From the NCBI RefSeq assembly GCF_029227915.1, contig NC_079886.1, forward strand, positions 20,558,501-20,622,500: a stretch of 64,000 nt of DNA. Reading direction: 5' to 3'. The position numbers were made by a program, and so were the translations under genes. The stretch is from Hydractinia symbiolongicarpus. Taxonomy: Eukaryota; Cnidaria; Hydrozoa; Anthoathecata; Hydractiniidae. Below the pieces are notes generated by a model. The model worked only from the letters and a program-made list of their open reading frames with translations, searched no databases and had not been told where the DNA came from. Below, one piece after another: positions 28,291-63,706 of this stretch (positions are counted from its first letter, which is position 1; each line of letters begins with the position of its first letter).

Positions 28291-30505
28291 TTATTCAGAG
28301 AACAGTGTTCAATTTTATTGCAATGATGATATTCATATGGTACCAAAGTATGAGATTTATGTTGATACAAGTCTTCAGTTTAATGTCCGTGTGCTACTAT
28401 GGAGTCTTCCTAAACAACATCAAATTTATAATATCTATGACCACTCAGTTAAAAATATCACAATTTCTAATTTGATTAGATACATTTCGGGTTTCTTTGT
28501 TTGTCCTGGTTTGCCAAGATCATTTTCTGGTAGTTGCATTGAACATACTGCACCTAAAAAATTTAACCCAACAATAGACATATTACCAAATCCTCTTTCT
28601 CAAACGAAATGGCATCGACCACCTTCCTGCCAATTATTAATTAACACTGAAGACAAATGTGAACCGTGTTTGAAAGCTGAATCTAGGGAAAAACTTTGTC
28701 TTCAAAGAAAACAAGACAATTTATCCACACCGGCTCATGATAAAGCTCCTGTTTCCTTAACATCTCCTGATCGTATAAAATTGAAACTTCAAAGTTATAG
28801 AATTGAGAACAAACAGTTAAAAGCTGACAAATTAAAGATGATGGAAGAAATCGTACAAAACGCAGTGCCTGTTGATGATAGTTTGAGCAAAGATATGATG
28901 AATATCATGTCAAATGCAGATTACGAAAAGATGCCTGAAATTATGCAATTCTTTTGGAGTGAACAACAAAAATATCTTTCTTCATCAAAGACAGCTGTTA
29001 GATATCATCCTATGATTATCCGGTATTGTTTGGGTTTAGCTGCAAAATCGCCTTCGTTTTATGATGAAATTCGTTATGACGAGAAAACAAAAGCTGGTTT
29101 CGTTATTTTGCCCAGTCGTCGCCGATTAAGGGACTACAAAAACTATATACGACCACAACAAGGATTTAATAAAGATGTCATCTTAGAATTTAAAAAAATA
29201 GTGGAGAATTTTTCAGACATAGAACGATATGGTATTGTGTTAATGGATGAAATAAAAATACAAAAGAAATTAGTTTGGGATAAGCACACCGGTGACTTAA
29301 TTGGATATGTGGACTTAGGTGATATGGAACTTAATTTGGCATCCCTTCAAAAATCTGATGACATTGCATCACACATGCTGGTCTTTTTAATTCGAAGTAT
29401 TGTTAACCCCTTAAAATTCTCCCTTGCCAACTTTGCAACCACAAATGCTACGTCTGTTCAGTTATTTACATTATTTTGGAAAGCTGTTGGCATATTGGAG
29501 GATAATTGTGGAATTAAAGTGGTCGGTGTTACAAGTGATGGCGCTTCTCCAAACCGCAGTATGTATCGGATGCATTTTATAATGACAAGAGTGGAAGATG
29601 TTAATGGAGACGTTGATGTAACCTATCGTACACTTAATGTGATGGCAACTGAAAAGAGATATATTTACTTCATATCCGGCCCACCACATCTGATTAAAAC
29701 TGCCAGAAACTGCTTAGCTAATTCAATGGCTGGAAGGTGCACAAGAAGTATGTGGAACAATGGTAAATATCTGACATGGAATCACATATCAAAGCTTTTT
29801 TTTGATGATTTGGACTGTGGTCTCCACCTTGTTCCCAAAATCACAAATAACCATATTAAACTCACACCCTTTTCTGTGATGAATGTCCGACTAGCTGCAC
29901 AGGTGTTAAGTGAATCAGTTTTTCATGCACTCCAAACATATGGACCATCAGAAGCAGAAGCTACTGCCACGTTTTGTATGATGATGGACAAGTTCTTTGA
30001 TTGTTTGAACATCAGAAATACAAAAGAAGGCATCACTAAAGCAAAATCGTTTCTAAAACCATTCGAATCACAAGATGACGAGCGCTTTACATGGCTACTT
30101 GAAACATTTCTAAAATATTTTTCTGATTGGAAAGACTCAATTGCCACAAGACCTGGAAATTTCACTGATAATGCCAAATCTAACATGTTCATCTCATGGC
30201 AAACATATGAAGGTATTAAAATCACAACATATTCATCGATCGAGCTTATTAAATATATATTGTCACATGGTGTACCATATGTTCTTACGGAGCGCTTTTG
30301 CCAAGATCCACTGGAAAATTATTTCGGAAGACAACGATCAATGGGGCATAGAAAAGACAATCCTACTGTTAGAGATTTTGGATACAACGATAACACGATT
30401 CGTACACAAAAAATATTCAGACCAATAGCTGGTAATTGTATTGACAACGAAGCATTTGCCAAAATTGATGTTGAGTCTATGCCATGTCGTAAAAAAAAGA
30501 AATAA
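28214..30505 (+). CDS. P-element transposase (THAP9-like)
   Basis: A 763-codon frame with the P-transposase order. A short coiled-coil (IKLKLQSYRIENKQLKADKL, about residues 195-215) is followed by IRYCLGLAAKSPSFY and LPSRRRLRDYKNYIRP. The RNase H-like catalytic core comes next: VLMDEIKIQKKLVWDKHTG (first Asp), VVGVTSDGASPN (second Asp), FISGPPHLIKTARN, and the C-terminal CQDPLENYFGRQR (candidate acidic residue and His region). It ends in a basic tail (CRKKKK). The nominal ATG at 28214 is probably not the true start, because the sequence upstream in the THAP frame belongs to the same protein. It catalyses cut-and-paste transposition in the nucleus. Apart from the frameshift the body looks intact, which implies recent activity. 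Confidence 0.9.
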   Translation: MNVINHFLNFLPSRIQNLRLAEWQYSYSENSVQFYCNDDIHMVPKYEIYVDTSLQFNVRVLLWSLPKQHQIYNIYDHSVKNITISNLIRYISGFFVCPGLPRSFSGSCIEHTAPKKFNPTIDILPNPLSQTKWHRPPSCQLLINTEDKCEPCLKAESREKLCLQRKQDNLSTPAHDKAPVSLTSPDRIKLKLQSYRIENKQLKADKLKMMEEIVQNAVPVDDSLSKDMMNIMSNADYEKMPEIMQFFWSEQQKYLSSSKTAVRYHPMIIRYCLGLAAKSPSFYDEIRYDEKTKAGFVILPSRRRLRDYKNYIRPQQGFNKDVILEFKKIVENFSDIERYGIVLMDEIKIQKKLVWDKHTGDLIGYVDLGDMELNLASLQKSDDIASHMLVFLIRSIVNPLKFSLANFATTNATSVQLFTLFWKAVGILEDNCGIKVVGVTSDGASPNRSMYRMHFIMTRVEDVNGDVDVTYRTLNVMATEKRYIYFISGPPHLIKTARNCLANSMAGRCTRSMWNNGKYLTWNHISKLFFDDLDCGLHLVPKITNNHIKLTPFSVMNVRLAAQVLSESVFHALQTYGPSEAEATATFCMMMDKFFDCLNIRNTKEGITKAKSFLKPFESQDDERFTWLLETFLKYFSDWKDSIATRPGNFTDNAKSNMFISWQTYEGIKITTYSSIELIKYILSHGVPYVLTERFCQDPLENYFGRQRSMGHRKDNPTVRDFGYNDNTIRTQKIFRPIAGNCIDNEAFAKIDVESMPCRKKKK

Positions 30506-30936
30506 TGAAGAAAATGATTAAGGCGCCGAGTCATCAACAAATCAAAGAAGAAGCAGCACACAAAAAACGGTTATTTTTATAGCCACACATCTTAAAAAAC
30601 ATTATTACTGGCTTCACCTTACTCTGTTTTTATGGTTCTGATGGTGAGTATGATTAGAAAATTCTGTGGGCCAGTATTCACAAATATAAGTTCCACATAA
30701 ATTTTTGAGTCCCAATGGGCAAATATTTATCCAGCATTATTCTGAAGGTAGTATTTTGCAGCACACAATAAACTGAATGTGTATGAAATCATTTTCTGTA
30801 AGTTCCATACAAAAATACTTACTTTTAAAGGTTGAATATTTCCGTGTACTTTTCGTTCTTTCCAAAATAATGTTTTTTATAAGTTTGTAGCTATAAAAAT
30901 AGCTGTTTTAACAAGTTTATAGTCTGTTGTTCAAGA
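30506..30936. other. Spacer between convergent P-element genes
   Basis: AT-rich spacer between the transposase stop and the end of the opposing gene. An AATAAA-like CAATAAACT near 30766 may serve as a polyadenylation signal for the transposase transcript. No further gene is seen. Confidence 0.5.
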
Positions 30937-32129
30937 CTAATGTCCATGATCCAAAGTGCTTGATGCTTTTTTTACTTCAGTTCGCAACAATCGTGATTTT
31001 TTAGCCTTTGATTTAACATTGTGCCGTTGACATTTATCCTTCACAAGTGAATATACACGAACACGAATATACAACATGATAAGATGTTCCAGTAAATTCA
31101 AAATTCAATCTCTTTACTAACTTCTTCAGTTGAAGCATTTTTTAATTTGTTGTAATTGCATAAAATTCTTGCATTATTCATGAGATATGATACCATTTTT
31201 TTACTGTCAATACTTCTATGCGTGGTGCTAGACTCTTGGCGGAAATGGGATTCAACTATGGAAAAAATTTCAAAAACTTCTGATGTTACTGTCCATAAGC
31301 CGCCTCGGTCTTTAATGCGAACTAGTGTATTGATTTCGGTATCGTGTTCCTGGTCAGTTGATTTACCAGCAATAAGTAGATGTATGCTTTGCAGATTCAA
31401 GATACTACGACTTTGTTTCGATCTACGTATACGTCTGTAAAGTGTTCCAAAAACATATCCTGCAAGATATTTAATAATTTGCTTTTCCTTTGGTGAAAAA
31501 TTTGTACCTGGAGATACATTTGCAATATCACCATTAACAACTGAACCTGTTAGGTGGGCAAGTACATAGTTCGCTAACTCAAATCCTAGGATAACTGATG
31601 CTCTTTTTGATAAGTTTTTGAAAACAATTTTCTCGGAAACACATTTGTAAAAAGAGGCATAAAATTTTTCGCTATTGTTTTTAAAACTGGCTACAACATC
31701 TTTAATAAATTCAAAGGTGTATCTAGCATCATCCAGTGTTGACTTTTGAAACATCAAAAAACCCTTTCTCGTTTCTTCACTATAGCACTCATCTAGAGCT
31801 AGCTTGGAAGCACATTCTCCGATGTATTTCTTCAAGTATAGAGGGTGTAATTTATTTTCAGGCTTTTGGTGATGAGGTTCAGCCACAGAAGTAGGGCCAT
31901 GCTTGCTATTTTTATGTCTGGTTAAACCTCTTGATGTCTTGCATATTTTTTCGCACTGATCACATTTAAAACCCTCTTCTATGGAATCAGCAACAACCAC
32001 ATCAACAATATCTGTTACAGGAACAGATAATTCTTTATCTTCCTCTAAAAGGTTGTCTTCGATAGCTGCAAGAATAGCATCGAAGTCATCACCATAAATA
32101 AAAGCGTCCGCTTCAGCCATCTTGTTCAA
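30937..32129 (-). pseudogene. C2H2-finger accessory gene of the P element, frameshifted
   Basis: The minus-strand frame starts MNKMAEADAFIYGDDFDA (32129). It has one C2H2 finger (FKCDQCEKICKTSRGLTRHK...H), then HPLYLKKYIGECASKLALDE, KEKQIIKYLAGYVFGTLYRR and GGLWTVTSEVFEIFSIVESH, and closes at 31098 after KEIEF. Immediately below, another frame continues the protein (NLLEHLIMLYIRVRVYSLVK...) to a stop at 30937-30939, so one small indel near 31100 truncates it by about 55 residues. The KYLAGYV block resembles the C-terminal region found in P/THAP9-type proteins. Similar two-gene P elements are, to my knowledge, present in cnidarians. Its role in transposition is unknown. Confidence 0.7.
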
Positions 32130-32215
32130 AATACGTCCCTGGTTGCTCCGGCCACCCCAATAATTTCATCATTGCGCCGTAAAACAAAACAAACGTAAAT
32201 AAATGGCCCGGGTAC

Positions 32216-32251
32216 CCAGACTATCTCTTTTTCTTATGACTATGACCGGAC
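32216..32251. repeat. P-element right TIR with target duplication
   Basis: A 29-bp inverted repeat (32216-32244), the perfect reverse complement of 27614-27642, followed by ACCGGAC at 32245-32251. Confidence 0.93.
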
Positions 32252-49038: not shown

Positions 49039-51776
49039 TTATATATGGTTTAACCCATGTGAAAAATGTCTATTTTGTGAGGTTGAACTTTTTTCCAAAG
49101 GCTCTGATGATTTGTTGTCAGGTTGCTGCTGCTGTTTTTGTTGCTTAAAAGATTTGTACCAAACACCGACTACCAGTTTTGCGATCCTTTCGGGTGTAAA
49201 ATAATGTACATTACTTACCCATTTAAAGTCATGGGTTGGTAAATCCTCGCAAATGGCCCAACTATAAAGGTTGTTAGCATCAAGGTATTGCCAATACGAC
49301 TTTTCTTCTTTATCATTATGTTGATCACCCATGCATTTGTTGTTGGCCTTGGCATAGGAATGAACAGCTTGCACAATGCCACCCCGAATGACCTTTTCAA
49401 ACATCAGTAGCATATCAGGATCAGTCAGGAGCTCCAGCCGGATTGCTGTATATTTAATGATGCCTTCCAAGCCAGTCCAAGGGCACTGTAAAAGTGCGCA
49501 GGATCTAGCTTATAATTTTTAAGACATATATCTCTAAAATTTTCAAAGATATTTGCTAGGAGTAGCACGTCAGTGGTTACATAGATATCATGGTAATCAC
49601 CTAGCGTAACTTGATCACCCTCTGGCATGATATATTTACATACCTTTTGAGCATATTTACACTCTATGCTAGATATGCCTTTCATATTAAGTTTACTATA
49701 AAATGCTTCCTTTGTAGCTGCGACTCTTCAAATCTTTGCCAAGCATCCATATATTCATAAGGGTACACCCCTTTCCGAAGCATCATTTGAAACATACCAT
49801 CCTTATCGAAGAATGGTGCCATTGAGGGTAAATTTGATTTTAATTCTTCTTTTATCAATTGCTTTAGAGTCGTCTCTTTACAGTTTTTGCAAAAAAATCT
49901 TGCAATATAATCATATCATATACTCATGCATTCTAAACACTCTTGTGCACAATTTTTACACTTAAATCGTAAGGTGATTTTTTGATCACCTTGTTTCCAT
50001 CTGAATTAGTAATTCCCGCGAGAGGTACGGGGACTTTCACGCTAAAGCTGATATACTATTCCTTATTTTCCGCGATACATCCAATCTCTTGAGTTTTGAA
50101 TTTTTTCCCAGCTCCCTAATGAACAAATGCGCGTCATAACCGCTCGGGTTGTGGATAATGGTTGGGATGTGATTAGGGATTGTGTGTTTCAGATTACAAT
50201 TATAGTGCGCCGCTCCTCGATAAAGACCTGTGTAATGACAATGATCTCGAACTTTTCGGTTTGATGGATCACCAAATGCTTTCATGCAAATGTGACATTG
50301 TGATGTGTCATTATGCATATTTTCTTTCTCTGCTGTGATTACCATAGGTTTCTGTGGTAACGTGTTATACAACCGCCTAGCCTCATTTTCCAAGTGATTT
50401 ACAAATTTCTCTACGCAATTCTTTTCACGGTATGTTGTCAATGGATCTGGTACATCATCATATGCAAATGTGATGTATGTGCAAAATCCACATGGAATAT
50501 GCTTATTCAGCTTTTTTGTTGTGTTTTTCAAGCACCATTCATGGAAATTTAAAGACTCTCAAAATCTGCATAAATAGCAAAAGGTACTTTGACTTGCATC
50601 CGACCATCGTTATATCGCAACCATTTTTCGCTCTCCTTTGGCATTGGAACCTTAACTGCCTTATGGTCTATACAGTATTTGTAGTTTTTGTCTCTAGATT
50701 CTACGCAATTTAAGGCCTGGAGACAATTTAGGCAGAAATGCATCGCTTCTGGTGCTTAGAGTTCTTGCTGCCTAACAACCTTGAGAGGCTTTTGATGATC
50801 TTCGCAAAATATTGATGCTGCTTTTTCCTGAGAGATATAAAACGTTGGCCGCAAGATTGGGGTTGTTTTTTCGAATTTTGTTATTTTATTGATGGCTAGC
50901 GGAAATTCCAAACCTCCCCAGATATATTGATCAGCAAAAGGTCGTAATTTAGATATCCTTTGTTGGTTTTTACCAATCTCTTCATGATGTAATGCTTCGA
51001 TGACGGCCCACTTAAAACATCCTCCATCGTTGTTTTTTGGGTTGATGACAGCCTTTTTTACACTGATCCAAGATGGTAGTTCAATATATGAGGATCCTCG
51101 TGTGAGCTGCAGTTTATGACAGTCGATATCCAGGTGCATGATTCGATCGATGGTAAACCCACTTTTTGCTAACGTTGAATTTTCCACATGTCTTTTGATT
51201 TCTGCAAACATATTATCCAGTAGCTCATTTACGTCATTACCTTGAAATACCTGCATGAGTTCGCTGTTAAAGGGCTTTTCAGTCCTTGCGTCTGCATATA
51301 GATGGTGTAAATCTTCCGCTCCCTCTATGTCTTCTGCATCAGGTTAAAAAGCAAGCTTTATTTTCTTTTCCACATGATCCACATAGACAGCTCCACTTTA
51401 GCAGATCCCATATCTTCCACTTGTTTCACAATCGAGTTTTCCACATGCGGTCTCACCATCGCTATATATCCATCAACATCAGCTTTTTCAATACCAGGTA
51501 TCCAAAACTTCTTGTGTAGCGCGAGTTTTTACTCTCGAGGTGTAAGATCAACCGCTTCTTCATACACGTCCCGGACGTCTTCGACTTGGTCTCCCTGCGC
51601 CTAAGATTCAATTTCATCATGCAGCGTTGAAATAATTCGGTTTTTTATTCCCTCCTTTATCTTGTTATAATAATCAGTAACAGTATCTCGCACGCTCTGC
51701 AGTCGATCGGCAAGAGCACCGCGGTTGCTGCTACTGGTGCTGATACAGTGTTGTATAATTGTGTCATTGCATTTCT
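49039..51776 (-). pseudogene. Protein-primed family B DNA polymerase, broken and truncated
   Basis: Minus-strand fragments follow the order of pPolB from Polinton/adintovirus-like elements. N-terminal helices occupy 51776-51380; LTRGSSYIELPSWI and KKAVINPKNNDGGCFKWAVI are in 51256-50756. FCLNCLQAL with FAIYADFESL (exonuclease motif, D-x-E) is in 50743-50549, and CHICMKAF with RDHCHYTGLYRGAAHYNC and SGYDAHLFIREL in 50531-50037. CKNCAQECLECM and KGVYPYEYMDAW follow, then DYHDIYVTTDVLLLA in 49685-49425. YLDANNLYSWAI (polymerase motif A region) and DFKWVSNVHYF are in 49470-49039. The frame then runs into unrelated Gln-rich sequence, so the palm motifs NSxYG and DTDS are missing. Stops and about eight frame changes separate the pieces. 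It would have replicated the element's DNA from a terminal protein; this copy cannot. Confidence 0.85.
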
Positions 51777-51805
51777 TACGATGGCTCTGAGGGGTCACAC
51801 TTCTG
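51771..51805. repeat. Element 1 left target duplication and TIR
   Basis: ATTTCT (51771-51776) followed by the 29-bp inverted repeat beginning TACGATGGCTCT. Confidence 0.92.
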
Positions 51806-51985
51806 TAAAGTATTTTTTTACTTCTGTTAACTTTTTTTTCACTTCTGCAATTTTTTTTTCACTTCTGCAATTTTTTTTTTTCACTTCTGCAATTTTTTTT
51901 TCACTTCTGCAATTTTTTTTTTCACTTCTGTAATTTTTTTTTTCACTTCTGCGATTTTTTTTTTCACTTCTGCAATTTTTTTAAT
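51800..51985. repeat. Element 1 left subterminal repeats
   Basis: Nine copies of ACTTCTG, mostly as ACTTCTGCAATTTTTTTTTC, spaced about 19-23 bp. They are in inverted orientation relative to the right-hand array and are probably transposase-binding sites (inference). Confidence 0.85.
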
Positions 51986-52048
51986 TTTCTAACTCACTTT
52001 TGGCGTTATTAATCAGTTGTCTAGTATCTCCTTATTCACTACACCGTC

Positions 52049-53228
52049 ATGGAAAGCGTGAAGGATGCTATTAAGGTTTATTTCAATCAAGGACTGACCT
52101 GGATATAAGGATAAGGTATACCTAGAGATACTAGAATTCCTTCGTATACATCATAACTATAAAACTAGTTTATCGACATTAAAAAGATGGTTTCGTCTTT
52201 ATGGTATGAGAAAAAGGCCCTTGGTAAGTATTAGAAATCAACACACAGATGTGATGCAGGCTGTGAAGGAGCAACTGGATGGTAGTGGAGCTGAGCTAGG
52301 CTATCGTCGCATTCATAGATGTTTAACGTCAAAAGGCATAATCTGCAGACGAGATGATGTTAGGCTAGCAATAAGGTATTTTGATCCAGAGGGAGTAAAT
52401 AGGAGAAAGAGACGGCGCCTCCGTCGAAGAGCATACCGAGCTCGAGGCCCAAATTATGTCTGGCACATTGATGGCCACGATAAGCTTAAGCCGTATGGTT
52501 TTAGCATTCATGGATGTATTGACGGCTTTTCACGCAAAATAATTTGGCTTAAATTAGGGACCACTAATAAACTGCCTGAAGTTATCGCTGGATATTATTT
52601 AGATGCCGTTTGAAATTTGAAAGGACTTCCTTTGACATTTAAAGCAGATGATGGAACTGAACATGCACTCATCGAGCCCGTTCTCGTTTACTTGAGATCA
52701 CTCTCAGGCGCAGACGCTGAGGAATCTTTCAGTATAACAACATCGCCACAGAACCAGAGAATTGAGTCATTTTGGGCCATGTTACAACGGGATCGTATTG
52801 GGTGGTGGCGGCATTTTTTCCGGGATTTAGCTGACTCAGACACGCTTTTTACTTCCGATCCAGTTATATTGGACTGTATTTAATATCGTTTTATGCCATT
52901 GATTCGAAGTGATTTAAATTCAATTGTTGAGGAATGGAACTCACATTTAATCTCAAAAAGCAATAATGGTGGACCAAGTGGTCGTCCCGATTCTATGTTT
53001 TTCCTTCCTCATTTGTTTGACGCAGAGGATTGTTTACAAAACGTGCATCCCCAGGAAGTTAATGAATTCCAATCGGTCACTGAAAATGAGCATTGTGATT
53101 TCTCGTACAAGTTTCAGGAGTTTGCAGAGCATTTTATGAATCGCGATGGTATCGCTCAACCACCAAATGCAGAGGAGGCACTACATTTGTATTTTTATCT
53201 TATTGAAAAGATTGATGAATTCTCATAA
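52049..53228 (+). pseudogene. Element 1 DDE transposase, disabled
   Basis: ATG at 52049 (MESVKDAIKVYFNQGLTW), then a frameshift near 52105. From 52206 it reads GYRRIHRCLTSKGIICRRDD (IS3-like helix-turn-helix/'GYRRI' segment), PNYVWHIDGHDKLKPYGFSI (first catalytic Asp), FKADDGTEHALIEP (second Asp) and SPQNQRIESFWA (Glu), followed by a C-terminal domain with SGRPDSMFFLPHLF. In-frame stops are TGA at 52611-52613 (homologous to Lys in element 2) and TAA at 52881-52883. All three catalytic residues are still encoded. It would insert and excise the element through an RNase H-fold active site. Confidence 0.88.
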
Positions 53229-53663
53229 TATACTTGAACAAAATATAAACATTTGTTGTTTTCTTATTGCTTTTTTTCCTTAAAAAGTTCATACAATAAG
53301 TAATTTTTCTAGTAAACCAAAATAAATGTGAGTCATATATATACAACAAACACTGCAATCGTAAAAACAAATAGATCTTAACAAAATAACAAATCCTTTT
53401 TTGGCAACATAACTATACTCCGTACCCATTTTTGTACTGATATTAGGACATAAAACAAATAGTAAACTGTAGTAAAGCTTAGTGAGTAATATATAAAGAA
53501 AAAAGGATGTCTACAGACCAACAAAAGAAGTTAAAAATAAAACAAAAGCATGCAAATAAACTGATTGGTATTTTCCTAATTACAAAAAATGTCACCATGG
53601 TCAGTTAAGCAAAAGTTTTAGTAAATGATCATATATTACCAAACATAACAAAGAAATATGAAC
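53229..53663. other. AT-rich spacer between convergent genes of element 1
   Basis: No ORF. It separates the 3' ends of the transposase and HECT-like genes and presumably holds both polyadenylation sites. Confidence 0.5.
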
Positions 53664-55697
53664 TCAGTCATTGTCTATTTCCCATGTTGATTTTTTCAAT
53701 ATACTTGTAAATTCCTCTCTAAGCTCACAAAAATTGTTGTAAGTTGATGGTAATTCCAACATAGGCCCACATGTATGTGCTATTGGCCTTCTGGAGAATT
53801 CAGTTACATCTTTTTTAAACATTATGTGCAGTGAATTGACTATTATCAGTTCTGAACCAGTAAGAAATTGCAATAGTCGCTTTAACTCCATATTTTCCAG
53901 TCCCCGTACAAATCTTTTAAAATACTGAAGTGCATCTCTTTCACTCTCGTTAGCAGGGTCCGAAACAATTAATGCCAAAAGCTTTTTTGCCGTTGGTTCT
54001 ACCTTTTCATACAAGGCAACAAGAGATTCCGAAGTTGATAGGTGTGTTAGTAGAGGGGCGAAATTAGTTCTCCAGCATGTTGCCATTATATGAGGTTTCT
54101 GGTATAGTTCTTGTCTTGCAAGCTCTATCACCACTTCCTTAACATTACTAGAAGTTACCAATGTACGACACTTAAACTGATCAAGAATGTCCATAAATTC
54201 TTCTGAGGTAAAAATATCAGATTTTTTAGAAGCAAGTGCTTCTTGAACAACTGTTCGTTCCATTTGAGATAAATACCTTAAAAACCCATCTATTAGATCA
54301 TCAGGATTATTCCCTTCCCCATACAAGCAGTAATGCATAAATGAACGACTGATAACTATTGGAAAGTATCCAGTGTCAATAAAACCTTTGACAAGAATTT
54401 TACCAATAGCCTCCCATTCTGATACATAGAGGTCATGTCTAACAAAGGGAACACGCTCATCAGCACCAACTAAATAGCTATCTGCAACGTCTTTCCAAAA
54501 CATTGAATATACATCTCTTGATACACCTGATCCTACACCATTTTCTGAGAGCCCATGGGAATCAATAACAGTGTAAGTGATCTTCTCATTCACCTTGATC
54601 TAGTAAATAATATAAATTTTACTTAATATCATTAGAAGTATACAAAACTTTTGGTGCCAAGAAAATTTGCCGGTTTGGACCAAAATCTGTCACTTAAATT
54701 CCCGTCATAATTAATATACAAACAGTAAAATTACCTCATCTTTGAAAGCTTTAATCAAGTCTTTTCTTATATTGTGTCTGTTAACTTTTACTTCTTTTTC
54801 TGCAGTTAAACATTCAGGTACATCTGTGGTAAATAGATTTAATCTGATCTGCCTTAATTCGGCAACTGATGGCAAATCAGGAATAGGATTTCCTTCAAAT
54901 GAACTATTTGGCATTTCGTTGTCAAAACAATCGTTTAGTTCTGTAGCTGTTGTCAAGTTCAGTTCTAATGCAGTCTTTTCCTTGTCCTTTTCAAGACTTT
55001 CCAAGTACTCTTGATTTTGTAAGCAGATGAAGCATTCACTTCCAGTGTAGGTACAGTGGCAGGTATGGCACAATTTTCGTTTGGGTGTACTTTCAACATT
55101 CATTGACTCATTAAATTCATTAAAATTGTTGAAAACTGCAGGTAAATTGTCCTCACTTAAATCTACATATGTTGACCTTAAGACAAAGAATGTTTTAGAA
55201 ATAACAAGGCCTTTTTTCTTAAGGTATTCCCACATGTCTTCATCTTCATCAATATTTTGACCTGTGATTGCTACAAGATCAATTGTGCATTCAGCAACGT
55301 TTTCTGAAAAATTGTTACAGTTGTTATCATCAAAGTAAAAGTTTTTAGCTAGTTCCTTTATTTCTTAGAATGATATAGGAGTTTCTTGTTCCACGTCAAC
55401 GAATCTTGGGCCTCCTCCATCTTTTAGCCTTACCACTTTGAATTTGTTAATTAGGTTATCATATCTCTTATACTTAAGTTGTAACTTTTTGTACTTTTTG
55501 GAGGGTCGAATAGAATATTGTGAACTTCCACTTTCAGATGACTTTGCTCGAATTTTGGATAACAGTTGTCCTAATCTTTGTTCTGTTTTTCGTGGACCCT
55601 TGTCTTTTTTGTCTTCTTTTCTTTCATTATTTGTATTTTCTGAATCCATAAATGATTTGATTTCTGTTCTAATGGTATTCTTTAAAATATTGTTCAT
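53664..55697 (-). pseudogene. Element 1 HECT-like protein, one stop, one intron
   Basis: Minus strand from ATG 55697. A basic, disordered N-terminus (KTEQRLGQLLSKIRAKSSES) is followed by KDGGGPRFVDVEQETPISF, a TAA at 55365-55367, and continued same-phase coding (EIKELAKNFYFDD...) into LVISKTFFVLRS, a ubiquitin-like segment. A CHTCHCTYTGSECFICLQN finger follows. A GT-AG intron (54734-54600, 135 bp, phase 0) joins AFKDE to IKVNEKITYTVID. The C-terminal region has GVGSGVSRDVYSMFWKD and ERVPFVRHDLYVSEW, and ends with RRPIAHTCGPMLELPSTYN, FCELREEFTSIL, matching a HECT C-lobe (HTC catalytic Cys, then LP-x-Y...L..EL). Relatives are often labelled 'G2/M phase-specific E3 ubiquitin ligase-like'. Transfer of ubiquitin is inferred, not shown. 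Confidence 0.72.
54600..54734 (-). other. Intron in element 1 HECT-like gene
   Basis: Minus strand: GAG|GTAATT donor (GT at 54734-54733) and TTTACTAG|ATC acceptor (AG at 54601-54600). Removing 135 bp joins the flanking frames without shift. Element 2's homologue is continuous at this point (EAFKTITVPQKIKF). Confidence 0.75.
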
Positions 55698-55968
55698 TGA
55701 TTTACACTAAAAATAAAAAATAATAATACAGTTTGCCCAAGGCACCAATTTTAGCACAGTTGAACGTTGTTTATGTTCACATTTTTATAAAAAGCCATCC
55801 CATTAGGTCCACACAAATAGCTAGCTAGCGTCTATATAACCTTTAACCTACCAAAAAATAACAAGCAACAAAAGATATTATAAAAAAAAATATTTTGACC
55901 AAAACATTGAGGACTAAAGTAAACTTTATTTTAATAACTACAATTTCTTCGGGCTGGGGCCTAGCTAA
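55698..55968. other. Element 1 interior left of element 2
   Basis: Probably promoter and 5' leader of the minus-strand HECT-like gene; no ORF. Contains TAGCTAGC (55820-55827) and runs to the CATATT target site of element 2. Confidence 0.45.
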
Positions 55969-56005
55969 CATATTTACGATGGCCCTCAGGTGTCACTTCA
56001 CTTCT
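55969..56005. repeat. Element 2 left target duplication and TIR
   Basis: CATATT (55969-55974) then the 31-bp inverted repeat (55975-56005). Confidence 0.94.
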
Positions 56006-56009
56006 TGGC

Positions 56010-56160
56010 TTTTTATTACTTCTCTTCTGCATTTTGTGAATTCCCTTCACCAGTTTTCTATTTCTCTTCTGCATTTTGTGAATTCCCTTCACCAGTTTTC
56101 TAATTCTCTTCAGCCTTTTAGTTCTTATTTTCACCGATTTTCTATTTCACTTCAGGGCTT
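56010..56160. repeat. Element 2 left subterminal repeats
   Basis: A 46-bp unit (TCTCTTCTGCATTTTGTGAA then TTCCCTTCACCAGTTTTCTA) is present twice in tandem, followed by degenerate versions (CTCTTCAGCC, TTTCACTTCAGGGC). Confidence 0.8.
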
Positions 56161-56325
56161 TTTTTGTATTTATCTACACCATATTTAAATATTTCCAGCG
56201 TTTTTTAATGTGTTAAATTTCAGTATATTTGTGTTCTCTTCAGTATATTTTTTTTGTGAAGAGAAATAAAAAAATTTTTGAAGGAAATAACGGAGAGACA
56301 TTTCACACGCAGCCTTGCTGTTGAT

Positions 56326-57537
56326 ATGGCATTGTCATTGCCAAGTTTACCTTGTATTAGTGATGATACTGGTAATCTTACTTTAGATGAATTAATATCC
56401 AAGTACTTTGAAAAGGGATTCACTTACTTAGAAATCAAAGAATTTATAAATACTCGGCATGGAAAAAAAGTTAGCTTATCTACAATTAAAAGGCACTTGA
56501 AAAAACTGAAGCTTTTTCGACGACCTTTGCTTAATCGACGAGTAGACGATGATATATTGCATAATGCAGTGAGAGATGAAATCGCTGGGAGCGGATCGAA
56601 CATCGGTTATAGGCGATTATGGGCTCATTTGCGGACTGAAGGTATTCTAGTTCGGCGAGAAGACGTAAGAAAAGCCGTTTTGAGCATTAACCCAGAAGGA
56701 GTGCTGCAAAGAAGAAGACGAAAATTACGAAGGAGGAAATATTGTAGTCCCGGACCAAACTACGTCTGGCATATAGATGGTCACGACAAACTTAAGCCGT
56801 ACGGATTTTGTATACACGGGTGCATAGACGGATTCTCCAGACGGATTATTTGGCTCGAAGTATCTTCGTCCAACAAAAAGCCTGAACTGATTGCGCAGTT
56901 TTATTTAGACGCCATCAAAAATTTAAAAGGTGTGCCGAAAAAGATCAAAGCTGATGATGGAACAGAACACTCGTTAATTCAACCAGTGCATATATTACTT
57001 CGGGACTTGATCGGTGACCAAAATGCTTTAACTTCGTTCTCTATCGTTCGATCACCACACAATCAACGTATCGAGGCTTATTGGTCCAAGTTACGTCAAG
57101 GAAGAATGGGTTGGTGGCAAGCATTCTTCAAAGATATGATCGACCTCGATATATTAGATCCAGCTGACCCTGTTCTAATCGATTGTCTTCGCTTCTGTTT
57201 TATTGGTATTTTACGCCGTGAATTGCGAGATATTAGTAATGAGTGGAACCAACATCTTATTTCAAAGAGCGTAAATGCAGGACCATCAGGTCGACCTGAT
57301 ACAATGTATTTTTTACCGCATCTTTACGAATGTGAAGATCACATCCAAAATATATCAAATGATGATGTAGATGAGTTCTCAATCGACGCTGATCAAATTC
57401 CACGCGATTTCTCCTCGGAATTTGAAGAATTCGCTCAAACAATTATGACCGATGAGGGACTTACTATCCCAGGAACTATAAGAGAAGGATTTGATTTGTA
57501 TTTGCGTCTGTTTGAGAAAATTGCCGAACATAGTTAG
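56326..57537 (+). CDS. Element 2 DDE transposase (IS3/rve type), intact
   Basis: ATG at 56326 gives 403 residues (the longer frame from 56278 would need TTG). The N-terminal helix-turn-helix region (LDELISKYFEKGFTYLEIKE) is followed by SLSTIKRHLKKLKLFRRP, then GYRRLWAHLRTEGILVRRED as in IS3-type OrfB proteins, and a basic RRRRKLRRRKY patch. The integrase core has WHIDGHDKLKPYGFCIHGCI (Asp), KADDGTEHSLIQP (Asp) and SPHNQRIEAYWSKLR (Glu). The C-terminal domain shows GPSGRPDTMYFLPHLYE. Catalysis would be cut-and-paste or copy-out at TACGAT ends with 6-bp duplication. No stops or frameshifts are present, so it may be functional. It converges with the HECT-like gene. Confidence 0.92.
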   Translation: MALSLPSLPCISDDTGNLTLDELISKYFEKGFTYLEIKEFINTRHGKKVSLSTIKRHLKKLKLFRRPLLNRRVDDDILHNAVRDEIAGSGSNIGYRRLWAHLRTEGILVRREDVRKAVLSINPEGVLQRRRRKLRRRKYCSPGPNYVWHIDGHDKLKPYGFCIHGCIDGFSRRIIWLEVSSSNKKPELIAQFYLDAIKNLKGVPKKIKADDGTEHSLIQPVHILLRDLIGDQNALTSFSIVRSPHNQRIEAYWSKLRQGRMGWWQAFFKDMIDLDILDPADPVLIDCLRFCFIGILRRELRDISNEWNQHLISKSVNAGPSGRPDTMYFLPHLYECEDHIQNISNDDVDEFSIDADQIPRDFSSEFEEFAQTIMTDEGLTIPGTIREGFDLYLRLFEKIAEHS

Positions 57538-58107
57538 TATTTCCGACATAGTATTTTTCAGTATATCTTTATTTTGTTCTAAGTCCGGGTTTTTTGTGTC
57601 ATTATATGTTTTTTATTCAACAGTTAATCACAGCAAGTGGAGTTCTTTCTGAGGATATCTACTGAAAAGACATTTTTCATACCTTTCAAAGAAAAATTCA
57701 ATGTTCTTCAATGTTACAAAGCATTTTTTCAACACAACTATCGATCCTCTGAAAATAACAAAATACAAACAAAAAGTGCCATACTATCAAGCAACATATA
57801 GAACATAACATATTATATCAGATGTATCCTGCTATATAAATCCTCTTTTTAACTGTATACATAGCTGTGAACATCAGTATACCTCAGTTTGAAATGCAAA
57901 AAAAAAACAGGTTAACCAGTAACCAGGTGAACTAGAGCCTACTGTATGTCAACATTATTTTAGGAGAGAACATATGCTAAAAATTTTCAATGCTCATCTA
58001 TCGGTTTACGTTTGATCATGAAATATAAACAAAATAAAAAACTTATATTCAAGTTATTTCACACATATAATGATAACAAAAAATCTCAAAGTCCATATGT
58101 TTTGTAT
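57538..58107. other. Spacer between convergent genes of element 2
   Basis: AT-rich, no credible ORF. Probably the two 3' UTRs. Confidence 0.5.
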
Positions 58108-60213
58108 TCATATAATGTCCATGCTCCAACTAGATGCAGATAAGATGTTATGCATTTCTGCCCTGAATTCACAGAAATTAGAATACGAGGAAGGCATTTA
58201 CAACATAGGTGCACATGTGTGTGCAATCGGGCGCCTAGCTGCTGTTAAACACGGTACAAATTCTACTCTTAATTTTTCTACCAACAATACATCTGAACCT
58301 GTACAAAATCTTAGGAACGTTTTAAGTCCGATTTCATCCAACCCACGGATAAACTGCTTCAGGTAATCAAAACATTCCCTCTCAGCTGCATTTTTTGGTT
58401 CAGCGTTGAGTATTTTAACAACTTTACGATTAGTTGGAAGTATTTTTTTGTAAAACAAATTGATGTCATTGAAAGTGCTAAATTCCTGAAAATCTCTTAA
58501 AACATTCATTGACTTTGTCCAACAGCAAACCATAAGATATGGTCGTTGTATCAATTCTTGACGTGCTATCTCTAATATCACACCATACACATTCATTATG
58601 GTAACACGGCTTTTACAATTAAATCGATCCAAAATATCCAGGAATTCTTCATCTTCAAATAAACCATTGTTTTTTCCATGGAGGGCATCATCAACAATCT
58701 TCGACTCCATTGGAGTCAAATAATTCAAAAAAGATTGAATTAGATTGTCATTTTGAACATTACCAAACAAACAATACATAATAAAGGCCTTGCATAGTTG
58801 CATAGGAAAATACTTTGTGTCATAATACCCTTTCACCAATATCGTAGCAATAGAACTCCATTCATCTAAATAAAAATCATGTCGTACAAATGGAACACGC
58901 TCTGTATGTCCTACACACAATCCATCTAATATGTCCTGCCAAACAGAAGAATATATATCACGATCAACCCCTATGCCAATACCAGTTTCTTTTTCTCCTC
59001 GTGCATCTATAACAACAAACTTGATTTTTTGAGGTACTGTTATTGTTTTGAATGCTTCCACCATATCAGCTCGAATATTTGTACGGTGAACAATAACTTC
59101 CTTTTCTATGTCACTCTCTGTGAGGTCAATGGTTGGTGCATGTACGGCTTGTGTTTCTGTGGTTGATGCATGTACGACTGGTGCTTCTGTGGTTGATGCA
59201 TGTACAACTGGTGCTTCTGTAGTCGATGCATGTACGACTGGTGTTTCTGTGGTTGATGCATGTACAACTGGTGCTTCTGTAGTCGATGCATGTACGACTG
59301 GTGTTTCTGTGGTTGATGCATGTGCGGCTGGTGCTTCTGTGGTTGATGTTGATGCATGTACGGCTGGCACTTCTGTAACTGGTGCTTCGTTAGTTGGTGT
59401 AGGTGCGGTTGGTTCATGCTGCGAAGTGCCAGAATCTGTATTCAAAAGATCATCTTGTTGGTGATCAGAATTTTGAAAGAGATCATTTGAACTACCAAAA
59501 TAACCTTGGTGGTCAGATGAAGGTTCATGATCAGCTTCAATTATTGAACTTTGTTCTACAGACGATGAAAATACTATGTCATTGGATGAGGGAATTGAGG
59601 TTGATGCTGCTAATGGATCAATGTTTCTTATTGTCTGATATACAGAAGGATAACAGATTCTACATATCCCACCAACCATTTGACAAAAACATACAGAACA
59701 CACATCTGTTTCGAATACGGTTGAATCAAAATAACCATATTTTGTGTGTAAAACAAAGTAAAATTTACTTATATAGACACCTCGATTTTTCAAGCAGTCC
59801 TTGAGGGTTAGTGATTCGTCAATCGCAACACCAGATGCATCTCTAATGGTAATTTCACAATCATTTCGACTTTCACCAAAGAAGTTTGTTCCTTCAGGAA
59901 AATAATGGTTGATGGCTTTTTCCTTGATTGATTCAACAGTATCGAAATCATTAACAACAACAAAGCGGTGGCCACCACCGTGTTTTTGCGTTACAGTTGT
60001 GTGTGTACCTTTTAACAAATCTGCACGTTTCCACTTGACATTAACATGCTTCTCCTTACCGTCCTTTTTAACATCATCAGCAGAGTTTGAGGTACGAATA
60101 CGTTTCAACAGGCTGCCAAGTCGAGTCTCTGTTTGTTTGTTTTTTATTTTATTTGGAGGGTCATCTTTATTCTGCATTTCGTCCCTCACGATTCTATTGA
60201 CCAGATTTTCCAT
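58108..60213 (-). pseudogene. Element 2 HECT-like protein, premature stop after AHTC
   Basis: Minus strand, ATG 60213. Basic N-terminus, then a ubiquitin-like segment (GGGHRFVVVNDFDTVESI at ~residues 88-105 to GVYISKFYFVL near 150), a CSVCFCQMVGGICRICY finger (~169-188), an acidic/Ser linker and a TTEAPVVHAS repeat tract (~285-363). The HECT-like domain (~400-667) has GIGIGVDRDIYSSVWQDI, ERVPFVRHDFYLDEW and ECFDYLKQFIRGLDEIGLKT, ending RRPIAHTCAPML at a TAA (58198-58200). Same-phase coding continues (PSSYSNFCEFRAEMHNIL) to TGA at 58108, matching the C-lobe end kept in element 1, so one nonsense codon removes ~30 residues just after the presumed catalytic Cys. There is no intron where element 1 has one. 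A ubiquitin-transfer role is inferred. Confidence 0.75.
59125..59390. repeat. 30-bp minisatellite encoding TTEAPVVHAS repeats
   Basis: About eight in-frame 30-bp units (plus strand GTTGATGCATGTAC(G/A)ACTGG then TG(C/T)TTCTGTG) code for ten-residue Thr/Ala/Pro/His repeats in the HECT-like protein. The absence of stops in other frames produces shadow ORFs on both strands. The homologous gene in element 1 lacks this tract. Confidence 0.9.
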
Positions 60214-60817
60214 ATCCTAAAAAATGGTAAAAATTGTAAAACATATCACCAATGTTTTATTCAATCATTGAACTTTTACTGTAATTATTCACCAAGCTGT
60301 ATATTAGCTATAAACCATGTTTGTTTATATCGCTTTGATATTGTTTGTTTGTTTTTTTTTGTTTTTTTTCAATGACGACACTTGTAAAAGTTTTTATGTG
60401 TCTGGTCTGTGTGTACACTGTGTGCCATAACTAACAATATCTATCTTAGAAAAGACATGTGTTATCCTTGATTTATAATATTTTTGCCATATGTCCCAAC
60501 TTTTTTGTTTCCATTCATTTTCCTCTGACCACTCTAGATAGCAAAAAATTACCAAAAAGCTGTCAAGGCTGTTGTCTGAACTTTCGCTTTCGCTCCTAAC
60601 ACACAGCAAATAGGTAGCCATATTTGATTCCTAGCTTCAATTATTGCTGATGCAAACAAAAAACTTTTTCGACTCCTCCCCAGAGAGGTGTAGATTTTCG
60701 AAATGAAATTAACAAAGACAAAAAACAGTAGGTGTAAAAATTTGATGACTCACCGAACAACACTTCGTCAACAACGTGTCACACAGATAGAGACCTCTGG
60801 TACGCTAATCAAAAATT
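60214..60817. other. 5' flank of the element 2 HECT-like gene
   Basis: Likely promoter region of the minus-strand gene. ORFs of 75-80 codons are unsupported. A CTCCCCAGAGAGG palindrome-like stretch near 60675 is unremarkable. Confidence 0.45.
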
Positions 60818-61018
60818 TCCCTTCACTGTTTTTTCAAATAGCGAAGGTCAACTAAAAAAATTCCCTTCACCACTTTTTAAATATGCAGAAGGTCACAAAA
60901 TGTGTGCCATAGAAAAACCCTGAAGGGAAAATCCCAAAAATCCTGAAGGGAAATGGCAAAATTATTGAAAAATTCAGAAGGGAACTGAAAAACGATGAAG
61001 GGTAATAAAAAAATATAC
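60818..61018. repeat. Element 2 right subterminal repeats
   Basis: TTCCCTTCAC occurs twice (60819, 60863) and then, in the opposite orientation, (C/A)(T/A)GAAGGGAA-type words recur near 60922, 60942, 60977 and 61006. They mirror the left-end CCCTTCACC units. The minus-strand ORFs here are not coding. Confidence 0.7.
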
Positions 61019-61055
61019 AGAAGTGAAGTGACACCTGAGGGCCATCGTACATATT
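61019..61055. repeat. Element 2 right TIR and target duplication
   Basis: Perfect reverse complement of 55975-56005, then CATATT (61050-61055). Confidence 0.94.
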
Positions 61056-61138
61056 GCACCATAATATTTGCATTTTACGATCTGTTTATATCCGCCATAT
61101 TTAAATAAAGTTCCTTCCTAAAAGTTTTTTTAAAAAAT

Positions 61139-61830
61139 GTGCAGAAGTAAAATTGCAGAAGTATTTTAAAAAAAGGTGCGCAGAAGTATTTTCAAAAAAA
61201 AGTGCAGAAGTATTTTCAAAAAAAAGCGCAGAAGTATTTTCAAAAAAAAGTGCAGAAGTATTTTCAAAAAAAAGTGCAGAAGTATTTTCAAAAAAATTGC
61301 AGAAGTATTTTCAAAAAAATTGCAGAAGTATTTTCAAAAAAATTGCAGAAGTATTTTCAAAAAAAAGTGCAGAAGTATTTTCAAAAAAATTGCAGAAGTA
61401 TTTTCAAAAAAATTGCAGAAGTATTTTCAAAAAAAGTGCAGAAGTATTTTCAAAAAAAGTGCAGAAGTATATATTTTCAAAAAAAGTGCAGAAGTATTTT
61501 CAAAAAAAGTGCAGAAGTATTTTCAAAAAAAGTGCAGAAGTATTTTCAAAAAAATTGCAGAAGTATATATTTTCAAAAAAAGTGCAGAAGTATTTTCAAA
61601 AAATGTGCAGAAGTATTTTCAAAAAAAGTGCAGAAGTATTTTCAAAAAAAGTGCAGAAGTATTTTCAAAAAAAGTGCAGAAGTATTTTCAAAAAAAGTGC
61701 AGAAGTATTTTCAAAAAAATTGCAGAAGTATTTTCAAAAGAAGTGCAGAAGTATTTTCAAAAAAATTGCAGAAGTATATATTTTCAAAAAAAGTGCAGAA
61801 GTATATATTTTCAAAAAAAGTGCAGAAGTA
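61139..61830. repeat. Element 1 right subterminal array, ~30 copies
   Basis: GCAGAAGTATTTTCAAAAAA is repeated about 30 times with a period near 21-23 bp, with occasional TATATA expansions. It is the reverse complement of the left array motif. Because the unit lacks stops in several frames, ORFs over 200 codons appear in all three plus frames; they are not genes. Confidence 0.9.
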
Positions 61831-61844
61831 AAAAAAAGTTATGA

Positions 61845-61879
61845 CAGAAGTGTGACCCCTCAGAGCCATCGTAATTTCT
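61845..61879. repeat. Element 1 right TIR and target duplication
   Basis: Perfect reverse complement of 51777-51805, followed by ATTTCT at 61874-61879. Confidence 0.92.
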
Positions 61880-61943: not shown

Positions 61944-62220
61944 TATGTCGATAAACAAAAGTGTACTCCAAAATGCACCTTCACTTTACGTATTTCATAA
62001 ATTACATATTCGGTGGGGAATTTTGATTCTCAAATTTTACTACCAAATGCTACGTTGCAAATCTCCCCGAAAAACGCATTTTCTTGTCTATTTTGATTAT
62101 GTATAAGCATTATCAAATTTTAAACGCAATATCACTTGAAAATATTTTTAGTACGCAAAGTCTCCTTTATACCGTGGCTGATTACAACGTTTTGTTTTCA
62201 TTTAAAATAGGCGCACTGTA
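61944..62220. other. Continuation of Polinton-like flank, no gene assigned
   Basis: AT-rich, with one plus-strand 70-codon ORF (61894-62106) antisense to the polymerase N-terminus and without motifs. CGCAAAGTC(C/T)CCTT occurs at 61896 and again near 62155, hinting at a short repeat. The left end of the third transposon probably lies between here and 62226. Confidence 0.4.
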
Positions 62221-62226
62221 AAAGAC

Positions 62227-62445
62227 GCGGCCGCGTGAAATTATGTGCGGCCGCGTTTTAAAAAGCGCGGCCGCGTGTTTTTAGGAGCGGCCGCGTGTTT
62301 TACCGCCAGTTTTACCGCCGGTTTCTAAATCTGGTCTGCAGAATGTCAAAGTTAAAACAGGTGCTAAAATACGCGGCCGCGCTTTTTGCCGCTGATTTTG
62401 CCGCTAATTTCAAGGTAAAACAGGCGGTAAATGACGCGGCCGGGC
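62227..62445. repeat. NotI-palindrome subterminal repeats of element 3
   Basis: GCGGCCGC occurs at 62227, 62247, 62267 and 62287 (exactly 20 bp apart) and again at 62373, with a partial GCGGCCGGG near 62437 and several ACCGCC/GCCGCT words between. In this AT-rich sequence that density is extreme. By analogy with elements 1 and 2 they are subterminal transposase-binding repeats upstream of the transposase gene. Confidence 0.75.
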
Positions 62446-62527: not shown

Positions 62528-63706
62528 ATGGATGCTATGCCAGTCGGTGTCGATGTGTCATTGGAAGATTTAGTGGCGTATTATCATAGCCTACGACCTA
62601 AGTTGAAGTATTTGGAAATATGTATGGTGATTAACAAGCGTCATCACAAGTCATTATCTATGAGAAAGTTTCAATCAATATGCACAAGATTGGGCTTACG
62701 TCGAACTAGCAATGTTTCTCGCAGTATCCTGGTAGATATTATTAAGAATGAGTTGCAAGTGTCATCTTCAAGTTTCGGTTACCGGCAAATGACAGAATTG
62801 ATAGCATTGAAGTTTGACGTGATTGTTGCTAAGGAGACTGTGCGAACTATATTGAAGGAGGTGGATCCGTCAGGAGTAGAAAAAAGGCTTGGAAAAGTGA
62901 TTACACGACGCATATATGATACCAAAGGTCCTTGTGACATATATCATATAGATGGAAATGACAAATTAAAAAGATGGGGATTGGCAATACACGGTGGTAT
63001 TGATGGTTTCAGCCGTAAATTACTATGGTTGGTTGTTTCAACAACAAATAATGATCCACTTGTAATCGGAAATTTGTTTTTGCAATGCGTGAAGAGATAC
63101 GGTGTATGTCCGCGTATACTGAGAATGGACCGAGGGACGGAAAACATTTATTGTGCGGATTTACAAGAATTTTTCACTGGTAACAGCGATAGTTTTAAGT
63201 ACGGTCGTTCAACGGGAAACCAGAGAATAGAAGCATTTTGGTCTCGCCTCAAGTTGTACAAACTTAATTGGTGGATAAATTATTTCAAACATCTCACATC
63301 AACACTCGTATATGACCCCGAATTACCAACCCATAGAGAAGCCTTATTTCTTTGTTATATTCCCGTTTTACAGAGAGAATTTAATGATTTTGTCATCACA
63401 TGGAATTCAAGAAACGTACGCCAGTCATCAAGCGCACCAGGAGGTCGTCCAGACCTATTGTTTCATATTCCGTCAGCAAGTGGCTATTCAAATCAAGGGA
63501 TGCTTGTGGATAGCACTGAAATATCTGTCGCTGAAAATGTCATGGGAATTGATCATCATCCAGTTTTCAAAAATAAAGATTTGCATGATTTATTGATTTG
63601 TTATATGGGGATACATCACTTGCAAGCACCCATGGACGCACAACAATCATTGGAAACATATGTGCAATTACTTGGATTCTTAAGGAATGACGGGTTTATA
63701 GTTTAA
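62528..63706 (+). CDS. Element 3 DDE transposase, divergent and intact
   Basis: A 392-codon frame from ATG 62528. The layout is as in elements 1 and 2: an N-terminal helical region (LEDLVAYYHSLRPKLKYLEI), SFGYRQMTELIALKFDVIV, CDIYHIDGNDKLKRWGLAIH (Asp), RILRMDRGTENIYC (Asp; DRGTEN instead of DDGTEH) and GRSTGNQRIEAFWSRLK (Glu), ending with APGGRPDLLFHIP. It is much more diverged than elements 1 and 2 are from each other. All catalytic positions are present and there are no stops. Its right TIR and any HECT-like partner would lie beyond 64000. It represents a separate subfamily with GC-rich subterminal repeats. Confidence 0.9.
   Translation: MDAMPVGVDVSLEDLVAYYHSLRPKLKYLEICMVINKRHHKSLSMRKFQSICTRLGLRRTSNVSRSILVDIIKNELQVSSSSFGYRQMTELIALKFDVIVAKETVRTILKEVDPSGVEKRLGKVITRRIYDTKGPCDIYHIDGNDKLKRWGLAIHGGIDGFSRKLLWLVVSTTNNDPLVIGNLFLQCVKRYGVCPRILRMDRGTENIYCADLQEFFTGNSDSFKYGRSTGNQRIEAFWSRLKLYKLNWWINYFKHLTSTLVYDPELPTHREALFLCYIPVLQREFNDFVITWNSRNVRQSSSAPGGRPDLLFHIPSASGYSNQGMLVDSTEISVAENVMGIDHHPVFKNKDLHDLLICYMGIHHLQAPMDAQQSLETYVQLLGFLRNDGFIV

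What the first reader, a model, noticed from the sequence alone, without database searches (positions are those of the whole stretch)
51777..61873. Two-gene DDE transposon carrying a HECT-type ubiquitin-ligase-like protein, present twice and nested
Elements 1 and 2 have the same gene content (IS3-like DDE transposase on plus, HECT-like protein on minus, convergent), perfect TIRs starting TACGATGGC, and 6-bp target duplications (ATTTCT; CATATT). Two independent copies show the HECT-like gene is a constitutive part of the element, not captured by chance. A transposon-encoded E3-like protein with a ubiquitin-like segment and a small zinc finger could modify the transposase, host repair factors or silencing proteins. 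I do not know of a described function for this pairing.
Basis: partly seen in the sequence, partly recalled or inferred. Interest (0 to 1): 0.88.

Follow-up and report, generated by a model that had tools for sequence, protein, structure and literature searches.

The report
Transposons carrying a HECT ubiquitin-ligase gene
Two distantly related jumping genes, one sitting inside the other, each carry a transposase plus a second gene resembling a HECT-type ubiquitin ligase, which suggests that such transposons use the host's protein-tagging system to help themselves spread.

Summary
Element 1 (51777-61873; exact 30-bp TIRs, TSD ATTTCT) contains element 2 (55975-61049; exact 31-bp TIRs, TSD CATATT). 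Each has a plus-strand IS3-like DDE transposase and a convergent minus-strand gene of the same design: N-terminal region, GGG-RFV segment, five-cysteine cluster, linker, C-terminal HECT domain with the AHTC cysteine. They are not copies of one family: transposases are 53% and second proteins 41% identical, with silent sites saturated or nearly so. Both genes show protein-level constraint, so the pairing looks old. TA..TA termini, 6-bp TSDs and IS3 similarity place both in the known IS3EU superfamily, where published fungal families already carry an alpha-kinase gene opposite the transposase (with a TET/JBP gene between). A HECT gene in IS3EU was not found in the papers searched. The ubiquitin-like segment is unsupported, structure prediction failed, both second genes here carry one stop codon, and the genome could not be searched for more copies. 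Best reading: a transposon-encoded HECT E3, probably acting on host silencing factors or on the transposase; activity and target are inferred.

The parts
51777..61873 (+). Element 1 (outer IS3EU-type transposon, interrupted by element 2); 10097 bp including element 2
   Evidence: exact TIRs and TSD
51771..51776 (.). TSD ATTTCT of element 1, left copy
61874..61879 (.). TSD ATTTCT of element 1, right copy
51777..51806 (+). Left TIR of element 1 (30 bp exact)
61844..61873 (-). Right TIR of element 1 (30 bp exact)
51798..51982 (+). Left subterminal array of element 1, period about 21 bp; 9 ACTTCTG motifs in 51777-52020, the one in the TIR included
61149..61830 (-). Right subterminal array of element 1, period about 23 bp, 28.7 copies; same motif inverted (31 CAGAAGT in 61056-61873, the one in the TIR included)
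52110..53228 (+). Element 1 transposase, broken (apparent frameshift upstream, two in-frame stops); D, D and E kept
53664..55697 (-). Element 1 HECT-like gene: two exons, one in-frame stop (codon 111), 632 codons (that stop counted) before the final stop
54600..54734 (-). GT-AG intron of 135 bp in the element 1 HECT-like gene, absent from element 2
53667..54593 (-). Uninterrupted HECT ORF of element 1 (309 aa); cysteine of RRPIAHTC at codon 53771-53769 (arithmetic)
   Evidence: Pfam HECT 7.5e-10; weak HUWE1 alignment (E 0.007)
55023..55070 (-). Five-cysteine cluster of element 1 (C-x2-C-x-C-x6-C-x2-C); coordinates by arithmetic
   Evidence: alignments
55975..61049 (+). Element 2 (inner IS3EU-type transposon), 5075 bp
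   Evidence: exact TIRs and TSD
55969..55974 (.). TSD CATATT of element 2, left copy
61050..61055 (.). TSD CATATT of element 2, right copy
55975..56005 (+). Left TIR of element 2 (31 bp exact)
61019..61049 (-). Right TIR of element 2 (31 bp exact)
56020..56155 (+). Left subterminal repeats of element 2 (42-bp unit, also listed with period 21), with CTTCTG/CTTCAG motifs
60811..60895 (.). Short right subterminal repeat of element 2 (44-bp unit, 1.9 copies)
56326..57537 (+). Element 2 transposase, open frame of 403 aa from the first ATG; D151, D210, E250
   Evidence: Pfam rva_4 3.8e-35 (419-aa ORF); NCBIfam IS3 7.4e-10
58108..60213 (-). Element 2 HECT-like gene: 671 codons, TAA at 58200-58198, then 29 further codons in frame
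59653..59700 (-). Five-cysteine cluster of element 2; coordinates by arithmetic
   Evidence: invariant columns
59130..59348 (-). 30-bp tandem repeat (7.3 copies) in the linker of the element 2 protein

Best explanation
These are two distantly related two-gene DNA transposons of the IS3EU superfamily. The DDE transposase cuts and pastes the element by its TIRs, perhaps helped by short repeats just inside both ends, and makes 6-bp duplications (anatomy shown; chemistry inferred from the superfamily). The convergent second gene encodes a HECT-type E3 ubiquitin ligase: its C-terminal domain takes ubiquitin onto the AHTC cysteine and passes it to a substrate chosen by the N-terminal, GGG-RFV and cysteine-cluster region (inferred from sequence). 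Its job is most likely to help the element persist by ubiquitylating a nuclear host factor, first of all one that silences transposons; acting on its own transposase is the next choice (target inferred, about 40 against 30 percent). The gene is a lasting, selected part of this branch of IS3EU.
For: TIRs, TSDs and their rarity. TA..TA termini and usually 6-bp TSDs mark IS3EU in PMC10045372 (passages). IS3 is the best NCBIfam hit for both element transposases and the D, D and E are kept. HECT domain above Pfam cut-off in both; AHTC aligns with the HUWE1 C-lobe (E 0.007 and 0.0053, weak). Co-linearity of the second gene: 240 of 588 aligned residues identical, HECT part 157 of 329. Constraint: pS 0.706 against pN 0.429 for the gene, 0.754 against 0.366 for the HECT part, 0.823 against 0.336 for the transposase; identical residues 240 against at most 160 in 500 simple neutral simulations. 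One in-frame stop each in 632 and 701 codons. Published fungal TET+ IS3EU families have an alpha-kinase gene opposite the transposase and a TET/JBP gene between, said to likely help escape methylation-based silencing (PMC12730594, abstract, passages and section 4.1).
Against: Neither second gene in the window is intact; the element 2 stop is the fifth codon after the AHTC cysteine. HECT similarity outside the C-lobe is weak in element 2 (profile positions 211-290 of 306 only), and the PDB matches are weak. No usable structure. Constraint in the N-terminal half is weaker (pN/pS 0.79). The simulations use uniform mutation and were not realigned, while the real proteins were aligned for similarity, which flatters the observed identity somewhat. 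Only two families could be examined; parallel capture of related genes cannot be excluded without trees. Substrate, E2 partner and expression are unknown.
Confidence: 0.6

Rival explanations
1. The HECT protein is mainly a regulator of the transposase: it ubiquitylates the transposase or the strand-transfer complex, limiting copy number or clearing the complex for repair.
For: The two genes travel together in two divergent families, as expected of interacting partners. Recalled precedents: RAG1 carries its own RING E3; ClpX dismantles the Mu transpososome.
Against: Nothing in the sequence shows the substrate; the two genes need not be co-expressed.
Confidence: 0.28
2. The HECT protein steers host repair or the cell cycle at the time of transposition, like the cellular G2E3 ligase whose animal relatives it resembles (resemblance recalled, not tested).
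For: Cut-and-paste elements depend on host gap repair (recalled). In a fish repeat survey, 27 of 122 unclassified repetitive candidates had blastx matches to various proteins, G2E3 among those named (PMC5638112, passages).
Against: No direct evidence here; homology to G2E3 could not be tested because the protein database was off.
Confidence: 0.12
3. Passenger: a cellular HECT gene was captured once by an ancestral element and is carried without benefit.
For: Both copies carry a stop codon; the N-terminal half is poorly conserved.
Against: Long frames, AHTC, cysteine cluster and co-linearity persist although silent sites are saturated or nearly so; simple neutral simulations at the same divergence give about 27 stops over the aligned codons, at least 12.
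Confidence: 0.08
4. Chance juxtaposition: a multicopy host gene family happens to lie beside the transposases.
For: HECT genes can be multicopy in animals (recalled).
Against: Both genes lie between perfect TIRs with perfect TSDs, twice, with the same orientation and order.
Confidence: 0.02

Closest known systems
[quoted passage not shown]
   Same: TA..TA termini, 6-bp TSDs, IS3/IS481-like DDE transposase
   Different: The passages read describe no HECT gene; 'HECT' and 'ubiquitin' have 0 occurrences in its main text
TET+ IS3EU families of fungi (PMC12730594)
   Same: IS3EU, 6-bp TSD, TIRs of about 30 bp or more, a gene opposite the transposase
   Different: Ends TAYGG..CCRTA there, TACGA..TCGTA here; the opposite gene is an alpha-kinase with a TET/JBP gene between; here one HECT-type gene; 'HECT' and 'ubiquitin' have 0 occurrences in its main text
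HECT-type E3 ubiquitin ligases (Pfam PF00632; HUWE1 and E3A in the PDB)
   Same: C-terminal position, C-lobe, AHTC cysteine
   Different: Encoded by a transposon; divergent N-lobe; five-cysteine cluster and GGG-RFV segment for which no relative was found
Other transposons with ubiquitin/SUMO-pathway genes, such as Ulp1-bearing plant MULEs, and RAG1 with its RING domain (recalled)
   Same: A mobile element that brings its own tool for protein modification
   Different: Other enzyme classes and other transposon superfamilies

Membership tests
IS3EU | TA..TA termini | tested here: met
   TACGATGGC...GCCATCGTA at both elements; definition
IS3EU | 6-bp target site duplication | tested here: met
   ATTTCT and CATATT, perfect; for element 1 a shifted reading with 4 bp exists
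IS3EU | IS3/IS481-like DDE transposase | tested here: met
   NCBIfam IS3 7.4e-10 and 9.5e-12, IS481 2.5e-09 and 5.4e-05, all below NCBIfam cut-off; Pfam rva_4 above cut-off
IS3EU | Grouping with Repbase IS3EU transposases in a tree | not testable with these tools
   No Repbase collection among the tools; protein database off
HECT E3 ligase | HECT domain above Pfam cut-off | tested here: met
   Element 1 39.4 bits and element 2 C-terminal part read through its stop 26.1 bits, cut-off 23.9; element 2 uninterrupted ORF 16.3 bits, below it
HECT E3 ligase | Catalytic cysteine in the C-lobe | tested here: met
   RRPIAHTC in both; element 1 aligned to HUWE1 AHTC, E 0.007
HECT E3 ligase | Bilobal HECT fold | tested here: inconclusive
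   AlphaFold pLDDT 44, pTM 0.32 with 2 sequences
HECT E3 ligase | Ubiquitin thioester and transfer activity | not testable with these tools
   needs biochemistry
Ubiquitin-like domain (N-terminal segment) | Sequence or fold match to a ubiquitin-like family | tested here: inconclusive
   No Pfam hit above cut-off, no PDB hit up to E 10, model pLDDT 40

The most novel reading that the evidence does not exclude
A whole branch of animal IS3EU transposons is defined by an obligatory HECT E3 ligase that disables a host transposon-silencing factor by ubiquitylation, and some of the multicopy 'G2/M phase-specific E3 ligase-like' genes annotated in animal genomes (recalled) are in truth genes of these transposons.
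Probability: 0.3. Interest if true: 0.85.

Novelty: new variant of a known kind. Interest (0 to 1): 0.62.

Why it matters
If true, a DNA transposon carries its own ubiquitin ligase, a class of tool familiar from viruses (recalled) but not seen for DNA transposons in the listings of the searches made here (the lists of 8, 37 and 61 were capped at 20 papers). It would give a direct handle on how cut-and-paste elements escape silencing in animals, and could show that multicopy E3-ligase gene families in animal annotations are mobile-element genes.

Tried and rejected
Structure tests: AlphaFold on the HECT part (alignment A2) and on the N-terminal 200 aa (A5), with 2 sequences each, gave pLDDT 44 and 40. 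No fold search was run because such models give meaningless matches.

Relatives elsewhere: 3 scans of viral contigs and 2 of genome contigs gave no relative. These collections hold viral and prokaryotic contigs, so this says little about animals. One search was not accepted because the alignment was too divergent.

Literature: IS3EU with HECT, 0 papers. IS3EU with transposon, 32 papers, 20 listed, two of them read in part. Other searches: 26 papers, 20 listed; 4; 9; 113, 20 listed; 2,108, 15 listed; badly chosen; 6; 2,016, 20 listed; 1,803, 5 listed. By title and start of abstract, no listed paper describes a HECT gene in a transposon; apart from the four papers named in this report none was opened. 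PMC12062965 read in passages: 0 occurrences of HECT, IS3EU or G2E3.

Considered and rejected: recent duplicate copies of one family (identity far too low); chance juxtaposition (TIR and TSD evidence).
Full report
What is there. Element 1 spans 51777-61873 with exact 30-bp TIRs and a perfect ATTTCT duplication; element 2 spans 55975-61049 inside it with exact 31-bp TIRs and a perfect CATATT duplication. TACGATGGC occurs four times in the window, only at these ends, against 0.10 expected. A mechanical scan of the window for inverted arms of 20 bp or more within 15 kb with adjoining duplications found these two elements and one other; it listed element 1 one base further out with a 4-bp duplication, because the next base also pairs. 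The 6-bp reading is preferred by analogy with element 2. Element 2 landed 278 bp upstream of the start of the element 1 second gene (55697), so element 1 was there first; fittingly, element 1 is the more decayed.

Genes. The element 2 transposase is open from an ATG at 56326 (403 aa). The element 1 transposase has an apparent frameshift near its start and two in-frame stops. Both hit Pfam rva_4 strongly (3.8e-35; 2.1e-31 read through) and have IS3 as the best NCBIfam family (7.4e-10 and 9.5e-12, far below its curated cut-off), with IS481 second. D, D and E are kept, with 58 residues between the two D and 38-39 between the second D and the E. The second gene runs towards the transposase from near the other end. 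In element 1 it has a 135-bp GT-AG intron (54600-54734) and one in-frame stop at codon 111; in element 2 it has no intron there and one TAA at codon 672, then 29 more codons in frame.

Second protein. Pfam HECT matches the 309-aa ORF of element 1 at 7.5e-10, covering profile positions 35-294 of 306. In element 2 the uninterrupted ORF gives only 0.0079, and the C-terminal part read through the stop 8e-06, positions 211-290. The RRPIAHTC motif aligns with the C-lobe of HUWE1, weakly (E 0.007; 0.0053 with the two-sequence profile); that this cysteine is the catalytic one in HECT ligases is recalled knowledge. Both proteins share an N-terminal region, a GGG-RFV segment, a five-cysteine cluster of identical spacing (C-x2-C-x-C-x6-C-x2-C) and a variable linker. 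The ubiquitin-like reading of the GGG-RFV segment found no support in Pfam or the PDB, and the structure models failed.

Two families, not two copies. Transposases agree in 195 of 370 aligned residues and second proteins in 240 of 588. Synonymous differences are saturated for the transposase (pS 0.823) and the HECT part (0.754) and near it for the whole second gene (0.706, dS about 2.1), against pN 0.336, 0.366 and 0.429. In 500 neutral simulations at the same nucleotide divergence, at most 160 residues of the second protein stayed identical against 240 seen, and about 27 stops (at least 12) arose over the aligned codons. Limits of this control: uniform mutation, no realignment, and codons with a gap or a stop on either side dropped before the counts. 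The N-terminal half is less constrained (pN/pS 0.79). So the pairing most likely predates the split of the two families and was selected for most of the time since; the stops in this window look like late decay. Parallel capture of related genes by two elements is less likely, given shared order, orientation and co-linearity, but needs trees to exclude.

Ends. Element 1 has short repeats inside each TIR that repeat the TIR's own ACTTCTG motif, inverted between left and right: 9 on the left and 31 on the right, TIR copies included, with spacings near 21 and 23 bp. Element 2 lacks this exact motif but has looser relatives: 5 CTTCTG/CTTCAG on the left and 5 inverted on the right, and CCCTTCA-type motifs, which on the right occur in both orientations, with a 42-bp unit on the left that is also listed with period 21. 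The spacing near two turns of DNA suggests transposase-binding sites; this is inference, and better for element 1 than for element 2.

Placement. PMC10045372 (passages) gives TA..TA termini and usually 6-bp TSDs for IS3EU and finds it not separable from GingerRoot. PMC12730594 (abstract and passages; section 4.1 in full) describes TET+ IS3EU families of fungi: those of rusts have TAYGG..CCRTA ends and 6-bp TSDs, and all TET+ IS3EU families have a TET/JBP gene between the transposase and an alpha-kinase gene of opposite orientation. The window's elements therefore fit a known superfamily that is already known to carry accessory genes in this orientation. What is new, as far as the searches reach, is the HECT gene: no paper in the library holds both IS3EU and HECT, and 'HECT' and 'ubiquitin' have 0 occurrences in the main text of both papers. 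Repbase Reports was not among the papers seen.

How it most likely works. Shown: structure of the ends, gene content, conservation, HECT similarity. Inferred: E3 activity, nuclear action, benefit to the element. By analogy with the TET/JBP genes of fungal transposons, said there to likely help escape silencing, the most likely target is a host silencing factor; the transposase itself is the next candidate. [quoted passage not shown] That G2E3 is a HECT ligase and that its relatives are multicopy in animals is recalled. This hints that such genes may be mobile in other animals, but was not tested here.

Limits. The genome search did not answer in 8 tries, the protein database was off, and the contig collections that did answer hold viral and prokaryotic sequence. 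All conclusions rest on two elements in one window; the host organism was not identified, and 'animal' rests on recall and gene content.

Noticed in passing
62528-63706 (+), with GCGGCCGCG repeats at 62220-62299: A third IS3EU-like transposase, open for 392 aa (Pfam rva_4 2.7e-35; about 31% identical to that of element 2; NCBIfam IS481 0.00088 and IS3 0.0011) next to element 1; its ends were not found and any second gene would lie outside the window.
   Followed up: partly
27614-32244: Another two-gene transposon: exact 29-bp TIRs (CATAGTCATAAG...), perfect 7-bp duplication ACCGGAC, a P-element/THAP9-like (name recalled) transposase (Pfam TNP-like RNaseH 4.7e-28) on plus and a convergent 343-aa gene with a weak, below-cut-off C2H2 match on minus (31098-32129).
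   Followed up: partly
50037-51256 (-), up to the left end of element 1: Decayed frames of a possibly virus-like element (Endonuclease VII match 5.6e-07; Polinton-type resemblance recalled); element 1 lies at its edge. Described only.
   Followed up: no
59130-59348: The linker of the element 2 second protein is a 30-bp tandem repeat (7.3 copies) coding for a Thr/Ala/His/Val-rich decapeptide; absent from element 1.
   Followed up: no
61149-61830: The right subterminal array of element 1 has about 29 copies of a 23-bp unit, against about 8 copies of a 21-bp unit on the left.
   Followed up: partly
54600-54734: An intron present in the second gene of one family and absent in the other: intron gain or loss inside a transposon gene.
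   Followed up: no
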